In this document: piece after piece, positions 1 to 36,243 of the stretch
Position numbering within the stretch: the stretch's first letter is position 1
Layout of the letters: each line of letters starts with the position of its first letter
Source: Candidatus Aenigmarchaeota archaeon LH_S7
Lineage (GTDB): Archaea > Aenigmatarchaeota > Aenigmatarchaeia > QMZS01
DNA length: 36,243 nucleotides
NCBI GenBank assembly: GCA_023659895.1
Contig: JAGXOL010000008.1
Coordinates: forward strand, 1 to 36,243
Direction of reading: 5' to 3'
Made by a program: the position numbers and the translations under genes
The notes under the pieces: generated by a model
The model's database searches: none
Told to the model about the DNA's origin: nothing
What the model saw: the letters and a program-made list of their open reading frames with translations, nothing else

Positions 1-54
1 TGTGGTTCAGAGTGCGACCTCAGAATCTCCTGATTTTAGTCGTGGAGAGTGTCA
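1..54 (+). mobile_element. Right end (RE) of an IS605/IS1341-type mini-element; body lies left of the window
   Basis: tgtggttcagagtgcgacctcagaatctcctgattttagtcgtggagagtgtca is nearly identical to the reverse complement of 27349-27402. Confidence 0.75.
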
Positions 55-145
55 AGATTTCCAAGAACTCTTTAACTACAGAAATTCTAATGAAAACATC
101 AAAAACATCTTTTTCAGATAAATTATCTTAGTTATTCTTTCTCTA

Positions 146-11605: not shown

Positions 11606-11980
11606 ATGAAACGATTTTACCTAAAAACCTATGGTTGCTCCGCAAACAAGAATGATTCAGAGATAATTGCAGGTATTTTATCTAAATCTGGTATGATTAA
11701 AATTAAGAACCCTAAATTTGCGGATTTAATAATCATAAATACCTGTATTGTCAAGAAACCCACAGAAAATAAAATCTTACATAGGATAAAAAAATTAAAA
11801 GAGAATTTTCCTAGAAAAAAATTCTTAATAGCTGGTTGTATGCCAGAAGCTTACCCAGAACTAATCAAAGATCACTTTCCTGAAATGAGCATGATTTCCA
11901 CGAACAAGATTAAGGATATAAGCAAGGTATTGACACTCTCCACGACTAAAATCGGTAGCTTTCTTGGGACTTATCTGTAA
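11606..11980 (+). pseudogene. Truncated tRNA-t6A methylthiotransferase (MtaB/CDKAL1-like), N-terminal UPF0004 domain only
   Basis: FYLKTYGCSANKNDSEIIAGIL..ADLIIINTCIVKKPTENKIL; radical SAM and TRAM domains absent; last ~16 codons read into an element scar (11930-11980). Confidence 0.8.
11930..11980 (-). mobile_element. LE/RE fusion scar of the same mini-element family
   Basis: Minus strand: acagataagtcccaagaaagctac (LE of 27349-27702 element) fused to gattttagtcgtggagagtgtca (its RE). Confidence 0.75.
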
Positions 11981-22298: not shown

Positions 22299-22502
22299 AA
22301 TTAATTAATCTTGACTGAATTTCAATTATTTAATCAATTTTTGAGCTCCAATAATTCTTTTTTTGAGTAATTAATAAAAACTAATCTACTTCCCTATTTT
22401 AACTTAAAATATCCAAGAAGTCTACTTCCAAAATCTTAGCCAATAATACAGATTTTGGTGGTAGATGAATTGGCATACTAAAGGTTTTTTGTAAATATAT
22501 AT

Positions 22503-23711
22503 ATGGTTGTGAAAAATTATAAATACAGAATTTATCCAACAGGAAAACAAAAAATAAGATTAGAAAAACAATTTGAGATTTGTAAAAACTTACATAATGA
22601 CTTATTGGAAATATCCAAAGAAACTTACACATGTAGTGGAAAGTCTGTAACAAGTAGAAAAGATTTGTATCAAGTTACCAATATTCTAAAAGAACAAAAT
22701 GGTTATAAAGGACATTCTCAGGTTCTACAGAATGTTGCAGATAAGCTAAGCAAGTCTTATAAAGCATTTTATCAGAGAATAAAAGAAAAACAGAAAGGCA
22801 AGAAAGTCAAAGTTGGCTATCCAAGATTCAAGAAGAGAATAAACAGTATAACCTATCCGCAGAATAATAGTTGTTTCAAATTCAAAAATCAGAGAAGACT
22901 TCATATAACTCAAATAGGTTCTGTTCCTATTGAGTTGCACAGGATACCAAAAGGAACTCCAAAAACCCTTACAATTAAGAAAACACTAAGTAACAAATGG
23001 TTTGTTTCCTTTAGTTGTGAGATAGAAAACAAACCAGTTAAACACAAATATCCTGAAAACAAAACTGGTATAGATTTAGGATTGGAAAACTTTGCTACTC
23101 TGTCGGACGGAACTGTTATAGAAAATCCAAGATTTCTAAATAAAACAGAAAAGAAACTCAAAAGAGAGCATAGGAGATTAAGTAAAAAGAAGAAAAGGTC
23201 TATTAATAGGAGTAAACAAAGAGTGAAATTAGCAAGATCTTATGAAACCTTAACTAATCAGAGATTAGATTTTCTACATAAATTAAGTTACCACCTTACA
23301 CAACAATATGATTTCATAGCCATAGAAAATTTGGGTGTATCAAATATGGTTAAGAATCATTATTTGGCAAAATCAATATCTGACGCAAGTTGGTCTGTTT
23401 TTACAGGAATGCTCACTTACAAGGCTTCAAGTGCTGGAGGTAAGTTAGTAGAAATAGACAGATTTTACCCATCTTCCCAAATATGTTCTGATTGTGGAAA
23501 TAAACAAGATATGCCACTATCAAAGAGAATATATAAATGTGAAAAATGTGGTGCAAAAATACCAAGAGATAAGAACTCTGCAATCAACATATTAATGGAA
23601 GGAATAAAAGAAAATACGGCTGGGCGAGTCGGAATTCACGCCTGTGGAGATTTGACCTCTACTGATCAGTCAGCAAGTCGAGTCGTGGAAGCAGGAACTA
23701 TATGTAACTAG
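22503..23711 (+). CDS. tnpB: TnpB RNA-guided nuclease (RuvC-like, zinc ribbon)
   Basis: GIDLGLENFATLSDGT (RuvC-I Asp), FIAIENLGVSNM (RuvC-II Glu), CSDCGNK..YKCEKCGAKIPRDKNSAINI (zinc ribbon plus RuvC-III Asp). Confidence 0.95.
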   Translation: MVVKNYKYRIYPTGKQKIRLEKQFEICKNLHNDLLEISKETYTCSGKSVTSRKDLYQVTNILKEQNGYKGHSQVLQNVADKLSKSYKAFYQRIKEKQKGKKVKVGYPRFKKRINSITYPQNNSCFKFKNQRRLHITQIGSVPIELHRIPKGTPKTLTIKKTLSNKWFVSFSCEIENKPVKHKYPENKTGIDLGLENFATLSDGTVIENPRFLNKTEKKLKREHRRLSKKKKRSINRSKQRVKLARSYETLTNQRLDFLHKLSYHLTQQYDFIAIENLGVSNMVKNHYLAKSISDASWSVFTGMLTYKASSAGGKLVEIDRFYPSSQICSDCGNKQDMPLSKRIYKCEKCGAKIPRDKNSAINILMEGIKENTAGRVGIHACGDLTSTDQSASRVVEAGTICN

Positions 23712-23783
23712 GTCTCACAACCATTACTAGTTGCTGGAAGCCACTTCCAAAAATCAATTTGGTGGTGGAGGATGTCACACATT
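23690..23783 (+). ncRNA. Putative right-end (omega/re) RNA scaffold region of the tnpB element
   Basis: Stems AACTAG(23706-23711)/CTAGTT(23727-23732), GGAAG(23736-23740)/CTTCC(23744-23748), CCAAA..TTTGG, next to tnpB 3' end; second copy has compensatory change. Start of RNA not determinable. Confidence 0.5.
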
Positions 23784-27190: not shown

Positions 27191-27923
27191 ATGCTGAAGG
27201 AAATAATAAAGAAAGAAGTGGATGAAATTTTAGAGAGAACATTTTATGTTAACTTCTATAAAATAGAAGAACTAGCAGAAAGATATGATTTTGAGAAAGT
27301 TGCAACTTGCAGAAAACCAGAAGGAGAAACAGGACATTCTTTTTCATTTGACACTCTCCACGACTAAATCAGGAGATTCTGAGATCGCACTCTGAACCAC
27401 AAAGCCTTTCGGCTGACTTCTTTATGAACTCTGCCTCAGTTCTGGGTTGTGCCAAAACAACCCCTAGTTTAGACATATAGCCTAAACCTCGTTGGTCTTT
27501 TATTGTATAAGCACCTTACCTCTTATTTGGTTGTTGCCAACGGTTTTAACAGGTGTAGTGTTCTGAAGTTTTAACCTTTCTCCAGCACAGCTATAGAGAA
27601 AGAACTCCATAACTATATACAGAAAACTTTAAATACCCTTCTTTCCAGCCCAATTCATCTACCCTCACTAAAGTCTGTAGCTTTCTTGGGACTTTATCTG
27701 TAATGCAGTAGTCTATTCTAAAAACAAAGGGGAAGAAGCTATTGTTTTGTGTGATAAATTAGGGGCTTTATATAAAAATGATAAAATATCTATAAATGAT
27801 ATCAACTTAGGGGAATCTTGTCCTCACTCTGAAGAAGTATCTAAAAACTTAAAAGAGTTTTTTCGATTGGATTATAAAAAGATAAGGGATTCAGAACAAC
27901 TTAAAGAATATTTAGAAAGATAG
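27191..27923 (+). pseudogene. ORF of unknown function split by a mini-element
   Basis: 5' part MLKEIIKKEVDEILERTFYVNFYKIEELAERYDFEKVATCRKPEGETGHSFSF; after the element an open frame NKGEEAIVLCDKLGALYKNDKISINDINLGESCPHSEEVSKNLKEFFRLDYKKIRDSEQLKEYLER*. Confidence 0.6.
27349..27702 (-). mobile_element. tnpB-less IS605-type mini-element (PATE/MITE-like), about 354 bp
   Basis: Minus strand LE acagataaagtcccaagaaagctacagactttagtgagggtagatgaattgg and RE ctcctgatttagtcgtggagagtgtca; no transposase or full tnpB inside. Confidence 0.75.
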
Positions 27924-31827: not shown

Positions 31828-31854
31828 ATTATCTATTTATTTTAAGTTTTTTAT
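31828..31854. repeat. 27-bp direct repeat copy 2
   Basis: attatctatttattttaagttttttat; one mismatch to 31478-31504. Confidence 0.8.
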
Positions 31855-32139
31855 TCGTGGAGATGAATTGCCTTATAAATAATTTTCTTTTTAAATATAT
31901 ATGGACATACAGGTCCTGTATTGTCTTCTGGGTATATCTTGGAAGACGGGGCTGCTGACCCTACAATAGTGAAATAAGGCGTCTGAAAAAGGTGACTCAG
32001 CCCTAAACTAAAGCGTGTTAGACCAAAACCTCTGCTATAGTAAGTTTTGTTAGCGACTTTAGAACCTCGCCAGTCTTCTGTATTCAAAACGGTGTTTTGG
32101 TTAAGGAAGCTCCTGAATTTATTCAGGGAGAGGAAGTCA
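31855..32139 (+). mobile_element. tnpB-less IS605-type mini-element / RE-RNA-like remnant
   Basis: LE-like gtggagatgaattgcc..aaatatatatgg (cf. 22465-22505) and RE hairpin CTCCTGAATttATTCAGGgAG followed by aggaagtcac; no tnpB ORF between. Confidence 0.65.
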
Positions 32140-32316
32140 CTTACCTTTACCCTCCTTAGACTTTGCCCTGAACTTGTTGAAACCGCAGTTTCTGCAATAA
32201 ATTTTTCCCTGCTTGATTTTTTGAGGGTGACCTCTCACCTTTCTCTTGCATCTCAGGCACACGAAAACGTTTTCAAATACTCTTTTGAAAACAGCCTCGT
32301 TCATCTTTACTCCCAT
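32137..32316 (-). CDS. rpl40e: Ribosomal protein eL40
   Basis: MGVKMNEAVFKRVFENVFVCLRCKRKVRGHPQKIKQGKIYCRNCGFNKFRAKSKEGKGK, two CxxC motifs; below ORF-track length cut-off. Confidence 0.88.
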   Translation of the reverse strand: MGVKMNEAVFKRVFENVFVCLRCKRKVRGHPQKIKQGKIYCRNCGFNKFRAKSKEGKGK

Positions 32317-36144: not shown

Positions 36145-36243
36145 AATGTGTGACCTCCTCCACCACCAAATTGATTTTTGGAAATGGTTTCCAGCAACTA
36201 GTAATGGTTGTGAGACCTAGTTACATATAGTTCCTGCTTCCAC
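36145..36243 (-). mobile_element. Right end and tnpB 3' terminus of a second tnpB element, running off the window
   Basis: Reverse complement gtggaagcaggaactatatgtaactaggtctcacaaccattactagttgctggaaaccatttccaaaaatcaatttggtggtggaggaggtcacacatt nearly identical to 23689-23783. Confidence 0.9.

What the first reader, a model, noticed from the sequence alone, without database searches (positions are those of the whole stretch)
23706..23783. Compensatory base-pair change between two tnpB element right ends supports a selected hairpin
Copy 1 reads GGAAG-CCA-CTTCC (23736-23748). Copy 2 (36180-36192, reverse strand) reads GGAAA-CCA-TTTCC. The two substitutions sit opposite each other and convert a G:C pair to A:U, while the flanking ~35 nt on the tnpB side are unchanged. 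An adjacent stem AACTAG/CTAGTT is conserved in both. This fits TnpB biology, where the RE is both a transposition end and the guide-RNA scaffold. CTTCC and the CCAAA of the next stem share CC, so the two stems may be alternatives. One covarying pair is suggestive, not proof.
Basis: partly seen in the sequence, partly recalled or inferred. Interest (0 to 1): 0.72.

Follow-up and report, generated by a model that had tools for sequence, protein, structure and literature searches.

The report
DNA-guide right end of tnpB element
The supposed RNA hairpin is better read as the right end of a small IS605-type jumping element: one of its arms (GAAG) is the short DNA guide that base-pairs with the element's own cut site, so the noticed paired mutation is weak evidence for a hairpin, although real structural covariation exists just beside it.

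Summary
In detail: copy 2 reads GGAAA-CCA-TTTCC against GGAAG-CCA-CTTCC. In 28 right ends from three Aenigmarchaeota genomes it is the only two-sided change. Two copies have one-arm changes, one lacks the second arm, and random re-pairing does as well in 131/500 shuffles. Each substitution also occurs alone in left ends. The hairpin is never the predicted fold; an overlapping imperfect hairpin (CCAC-TT-CCAAA/TTTGG-TG-GTGG) is.

The element is IS608-like. Orthologous empty sites prove scarless insertion TTAA|[22403-23778]|. GAAG (23737-23740) is the right DNA guide for cleavage site TCAC (23775-23778); AAGT (22418-22421) is the left guide for TTAA. Two sister end families in the same genomes use TTAC/AAAG with TCAA/GAAT (exactly IS608) and TTAT/AAAA with TCAC/GAAG. 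Guide and cut site therefore vary together at position 4 at both ends; all three left sites are backed by empty sites. Copy 2's G-to-A breaks that match.

The neighbouring AACTAG stem is the better structural candidate: a second module of equal length keeps seven pairs in the same register with most bases changed, at the position of omegaRNA stem 3. Ordinary family, unusually clean natural retargeting.

The parts
22399..22402 (+). left cleavage/target site C_L = TTAA (stays in the flank; presumed TAM of the TnpB)
   Evidence: empty sites in related genomes; conserved with variable upstream sequence in left ends
22403..23778 (+). complete tnpB-only IS200/IS605 element (1376 bp), from C after TTAA to TCAC
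   Evidence: boundaries fixed by empty sites of sister copies L045 and L042
22418..22421 (+). left DNA guide G_L = AAGT, 15 nt after the cut, just 5' of the foot
   Evidence: 30 left ends TTAA-15nt-AAGT; IS608 rule from PMC5934647
22422..22464 (+). left imperfect hairpin: foot CTAC/GTAG, TT/TG internal mismatch, CCAAAATC/GATTTTGG
   Evidence: sequence; DNA fold z = -3.7
22503..23711 (+). tnpB (402 aa; OrfB_IS605, Cas12f1-like TNB, HTH_OrfB)
   Evidence: Pfam
23704..23734 (+). 31-nt hairpin module type I (GTAACTAG/CTAGTTGC); replaced by ACGATGA/TCATCGT (type II) in other copies; position of omegaRNA stem 3
   Evidence: ISDra2 omegaRNA architecture PMC10097598
   Evidence: GAAG-TCAC / GAAT-TCAA covariation in three genomes; IS608 rule
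23741..23768 (+). right imperfect hairpin B: foot CCAC/GTGG, TT/TG mismatch, CCAAA/TTTGG
   Evidence: minimum-energy fold as DNA and RNA; pair counts; shared with left end and other tnpB types
23775..23778 (+). right cleavage site C_R = TCAC, last bases of the element; guide part of an omegaRNA would start at 23779
   Evidence: empty sites; flanks diverge right after TCAC in all 28 copies
36150..36243 (-). copy 2: right end only, cut by the contig end; G_R reads GAAA, foot CCAT
27348..27699 (-). sister family 2 non-autonomous element (TTAC/AAAG ... GAAT/TCAA)
23..55 (+). family 2 right end (GAATCTCC...GTCAA) at the contig start
32106..32140 (+). family 3 right end (GAAGCTCC...GTCAC)

Best explanation
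The feature is the right end of a tnpB-only IS200/IS605 element of IS608 type. On single-stranded DNA, 23741-23768 folds into the imperfect hairpin that a Y1 (HUH) TnpA binds. GAAG just 5' of its foot is the guide G_R, which pairs with the cleavage site TCAC at the tip and brings it into the active site. AAGT does the same at the left end for the target TTAA. The CTTCC that seems to pair with GGAAG is mostly foot, mismatch and upper-stem bases of that hairpin. Copy 2's double change is most likely coincidental, or a templated repair, in a copy whose guide no longer matches its cut site. In the transcript the same region would be the 3' part of the TnpB omegaRNA, in which the neighbouring AACTAG (or ACGATGA) stem corresponds to stem 3; that is where real structural covariation lies. 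Shown: boundaries, scarless insertion, guide/site covariation, stem-module swap. Inferred: cleavage chemistry, which TnpA acts (none found in this genome; one with similar ends in LH_S6), RNA expression.
For: Orthologous empty sites give TTAA|C...TCAC| with no target duplication. The IS608 rule and its four tetranucleotides (TTAC/AAAG, TCAA/GAAT) come from PMC5934647. Left ends: 30 TTAA-AAGT and 20 TTAC-AAAG at exactly 15 nt, the IS608 spacing; family 3 TTAT/AAAA; families 2 and 3 also have empty sites. Right ends: a pattern leaving both position-4 bases free found 52 GAAG-TCAC, 32 GAAT-TCAA, no GAAG-TCAA, and 2 GAAT-TCAC that lack the hairpin (counted by hand). The same ends flank TnpBs only ~27% identical (L072, L078), so they follow the transposase, not TnpB. 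Hairpin B is the predicted fold of the window's right end, hairpin A is not predicted for any copy folded; hairpin A covariation is not above shuffles. Stem module: seven pairs kept in one register between types I and II, 0.0008 by shuffling.
Against: No tnpA was found in the window's genome (assembly 85% complete), and the LH_S6 tnpA sits in family 2, whose tetranucleotides differ. The guide/site covariation reflects only three end families, so few independent events. Both ends of family 1 happen to allow a GAAG...CTTC hairpin, which is unexplained if it is pure coincidence.
Confidence: 0.88

Rival explanations
1. Hairpin A (GGAAG/CTTCC) is a selected RNA or DNA stem, for example a temporary fold that hides the guide G_R until hairpin B forms; copy 2 keeps it by compensation.
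For: One true two-sided change in copy 2; G.U intermediates (C>T alone) in left ends L042/L045/L087; both ends of family 1 allow GAAG...CTTC.
Against: One event in 28 right ends; two one-arm changes and one copy lacking arm 2; 131/500 shuffles as good; not the predicted fold; absent in families 2 and 3, in the C44 element and in L011.
Confidence: 0.06
2. The paired change in copy 2 arose in one step by templated repair of the short inverted repeat (quasi-palindrome correction), with no selection.
For: A 5-7 bp inverted repeat with a 3-nt gap is a classic substrate (general knowledge); both changes are transitions in one copy; the copy's guide is then mismatched, as expected for a decaying copy.
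Against: A template switch cannot be told from two point mutations with one copy; no second example among 28.
Confidence: 0.3
3. CTTCC (23744-23748) pairs in the omegaRNA with the upstream in-ORF GGAAG (23687-23691), enclosing the stem module like ISDra2 stem 2, rather than with the local GGAAG.
For: This long-range pairing is in the minimum-energy fold of the 122-127 nt RNA of both module types; ISDra2 stem 2 encloses stem 3 (PMC10097598); copy 2 would keep it through G.U.
Against: Fold z-scores are modest (-0.9, -2.0); the C44 relative keeps the upstream motif but has no CTTCC.
Confidence: 0.25

Closest known systems
IS608 (IS200/IS605 family, Helicobacter pylori)
   Same: Imperfect hairpins at both ends; 4-nt guide directly 5' of the foot; 15 nt from left cut to left guide; scarless insertion 3' of a tetranucleotide; sister family 2 has exactly TTAC/AAAG and TCAA/GAAT.
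   Different: The window family is tnpB-only and has TTAA/AAGT and TCAC/GAAG.
ISDra2 and its TnpB-omegaRNA (reRNA)
   Same: tnpB followed by a right end that would supply the scaffold; last bases before the guide are part of both the cut site and the RNA; target site presumed to be the TAM; a stem at the place of stem 3.
   Different: TTAA instead of TTGAT; no tnpA in the element; RNA not shown here; scaffold pairing not established.
Non-autonomous IS200/IS605 derivatives (MITE/PATE-like)
   Same: 280-350 nt elements with both ends and no ORF.
   Different: Family 1 copies keep the tnpB upstream region and the last ~180 nt including the putative omegaRNA.

Membership tests
IS200/IS605 transposon (IS608-like ends) | scarless insertion 3' of a short conserved site, no target duplication | tested here: met
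   empty sites L097, L100 (clear), L101, L102; families 2 and 3
IS200/IS605 transposon (IS608-like ends) | imperfect subterminal hairpins at both ends | tested here: met
IS200/IS605 transposon (IS608-like ends) | guide tetranucleotides matching the cleavage tetranucleotides | tested here: met
IS200/IS605 transposon (IS608-like ends) | Y1 HUH TnpA encoded by the element or available in trans | tested here: inconclusive
   none in G000 (85% complete); Y1_Tnp in LH_S6 and LH_S4, the LH_S6 one behind a family-2 left end
TnpB RNA-guided nuclease | OrfB_IS605 + TNB zinc-finger domains | tested here: met
   RuvC-like motifs GIDLG, IAIENL, RDKNS read from the sequence
TnpB RNA-guided nuclease | right-end RNA bound and processed, guide from the 3' flank | not testable with these tools
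   needs small-RNA sequencing; no Rfam match
structured RNA with covarying GGAAG/CTTCC stem | compensatory changes above chance across copies | tested here: not met
   131/500 shuffles as good; look-elsewhere p 0.03-0.06

The most novel reading that the evidence does not exclude
Three end families in one archaeal lineage have naturally re-programmed the transposase's DNA guide (TTAA/AAGT, TTAC/AAAG, TTAT/AAAA), perhaps all served by one TnpA in trans, with unrelated TnpBs recruited behind the same ends and omegaRNA-bearing mini-elements supplying guides to TnpB in trans.
Probability: 0.3. Interest if true: 0.65.

Novelty: new member of a known kind. Interest (0 to 1): 0.4.

Why it matters
It replaces a weak covariation claim with a tested one. 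The arm that seemed to be a hairpin strand is a DNA guide, and its fourth base follows the cleavage site across three natural end families. That is a natural counterpart of the engineered retargeting of IS608, in uncultivated archaea, and it gives a ready set of guide/site pairs for testing. It also shows how omegaRNA and transposase constraints overlap in one right end, and warns against reading RNA structure from two copies.

Tried and rejected
Hairpin A as a covarying stem: rejected. Rfam: no RNA family in the window, and only tRNA genes in the related loci. Left boundary after TTAAC: replaced by TTAA|C, because empty sites and reading-frame restoration in L045 need it. C_L of the tnpA-bearing element first read as TTAAC, then as TTAC once more copies were seen. 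I did not build a covariance model: the right ends are too alike to add information. Structure prediction was not needed.

Full report
Setting. The window is contig 55 of a 740-kb, 85%-complete archaeal genome. Its close relatives are Candidatus Aenigmarchaeota LH_S4 and LH_S6. The tnpB at 22503-23711 encodes a 402-aa protein with OrfB_IS605, Cas12f1-like TNB and HTH_OrfB domains. Copy 2 lies at the contig end, where the assembly breaks in this repeat, so nothing is known about what it is attached to.

The observation. Both sequences are as described. I collected 28 right ends of this type from three genomes. All end in GTCAC and diverge directly after it. Copy 2 (L007) is the only one with a two-sided change in GGAAG/CTTCC. 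L027 has lost one base of arm 1, L062 has G>A in arm 1, and L011 lacks arm 2 (GGAAGCCCCATCTTTTAAGTTGGGGAGGATGTCAC) while keeping an imperfect hairpin. L008 and L026 change the loop. Among left ends, which are built alike (GAAG TCTA CTTC), C>T alone occurs in L042, L045 and L087 and G>A alone in L095. On the eight distinct copies that keep this core (L011 left out), 131 of 500 shuffles reach the observed covariation. A simulation gives 0.002 for this hairpin alone but 0.03-0.06 for any helix of at least 5 or 4 bp. The change is therefore weak evidence.

What folds. As DNA or RNA, the terminal 43-44 nt of copy 1 fold into hairpin B, CCAC TT CCAAA-loop-TTTGG TG GTGG, not into hairpin A. Copy 2's substitutions weaken B (-6.3 to -4.6 kcal/mol as DNA). 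B keeps 98.8% of cells paired in the same alignment, with one-sided G.U changes and one broken cell. The same architecture with other bases is found in the left end (CTAC/GTAG foot, CCAAAATC/GATTTTGG) and in right ends attached to other TnpBs (CCAC/GTGG foot, CTAAAATAT/ATATTTTAG).

The ends belong to the transposase. Elements L072 and L078 carry the same left end and a right end of the same design but TnpBs only about 27% identical to the window's. An end that stays when TnpB changes is most simply a TnpA site.

Boundaries. Related genomes hold the uninterrupted versions of two insertion sites (L045 against L097, L101 and L102; L042 against L100). They give ...TTTAA|[CTTAAAATAGCC ... GTCAC]|AGTTAG..., without loss or duplication; L097 and L100 are clear, L101 and L102 are more diverged at the junction. 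The window element is thus 22403-23778.

The guide. In IS608, TnpA does not read the cut sites. A tetranucleotide 5' of each hairpin foot pairs with them: C_L TTAC with G_L AAAG, C_R TCAA with G_R GAAT, where bases 1 and 2 of the guide pair with bases 2 and 1 of the site (PMC5934647); that the fourth bases pair with each other is my reading of these sequences. In the window the four bases 5' of the right foot are GAAG, which demands TCNC, and the element ends TCAC. The four bases 5' of the left foot are AAGT, which demands TTNA, and the site is TTAA.

Covariation of guide and site. A left-end pattern gave 30 contexts TTAA-15nt-AAGT and 20 TTAC-15nt-AAAG; the rest were single-copy indel variants, one AAAT, or chance hits. 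A right-end pattern that left both fourth bases free gave 86 matches: 52 GAAG-TCAC, 32 GAAT-TCAA, no GAAG-TCAA, and 2 GAAT-TCAC that are one near-identical sequence in two genomes without the hairpin (counted by hand). A third family has TTAT with AAAA on the left (spacing 14 or 17 nt) and TCAC with GAAG on the right. Families 2 and 3 also have empty sites with the junction after TTAC and TTAT. So the left fourth base is A, C or T with guide T, G or A, and the right fourth base is C or A with guide G or T. This is covariation between families, hence few independent events, but it follows a rule set by a crystal structure. Copy 2's G>A is exactly G_R position 4; with TCAC unchanged, copy 2 is predicted to be impaired (inference).

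The neighbouring stem. The AACTAG stem comes as two 31-nt modules between identical flanks: GTAACTAG...CTAGTTGC and ACGATGA...TCATCGT. They are 8/31 identical, yet seven pairs hold in the same register, four of them changed on both sides (0.0008 by shuffling). Module type does not follow tnpB: L030 (type I) and L028 (type II) are 96% identical upstream, so modules were probably exchanged by recombination. Relative to the end, the module lies at -75 to -45; stem 3 of the ISDra2 omegaRNA lies at -77 to -42 and its distal part was disordered in the structure (PMC10097598). This is the better candidate for a selected RNA stem. L043 and L026 each carry one single-arm mismatch in it. In ISDra2 the last bases before the guide also form the omegaRNA pseudoknot, so TCAC may be held by both DNA and RNA (inference for this element).

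Mechanism, with status. Shown: boundaries, scarless insertion, hairpin design, guide/site covariation, module swap. Inferred: single-strand excision and insertion by a Y1 TnpA in trans. No tnpA was found in this genome; LH_S6 has one behind a family 2 left end. Also inferred: TnpB using TTAA as TAM with an RNA whose guide starts at 23779.

Verdict. An ordinary family member with an unusually clear natural record of guide reprogramming; the proposed hairpin is not supported.

Noticed in passing
L041, L042, L044, L045, L046 (about 275-285 nt each): Non-autonomous family 1 elements keep the left end with the tnpB upstream AT-rich region and the last ~180 nt with the putative omegaRNA; they could supply guides to TnpB in trans.
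   Followed up: partly
L041 against L044: Orthologous insertion site in LH_S4 and LH_S6 with module type I in one and type II in the other; LH_S4 also lacks about 35-40 bp directly after the right end.
   Followed up: partly
window 11930-11976 (-): A 47-nt family 2 mini-element, left and right hairpin fused, sits at the end of a truncated MiaB-like ORF (11606-11980).
   Followed up: partly
window 31850-32140 (+): Family 3 non-autonomous element with a strongly conserved ~230-nt interior and a truncated left end; no Rfam match. Its interior may be another guide RNA scaffold.
   Followed up: partly
window 23-55 and 36150-36243: Both contig ends fall in IS right ends, so the assembly breaks at these repeats.
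   Followed up: yes
L072, L078: Two other TnpB types (about 27% identical to the window's) carried between the same family 1 ends.
   Followed up: partly
L039: LH_S6 has a right end with the same downstream flank as the window element, so the insertion is probably shared between genera.
   Followed up: no
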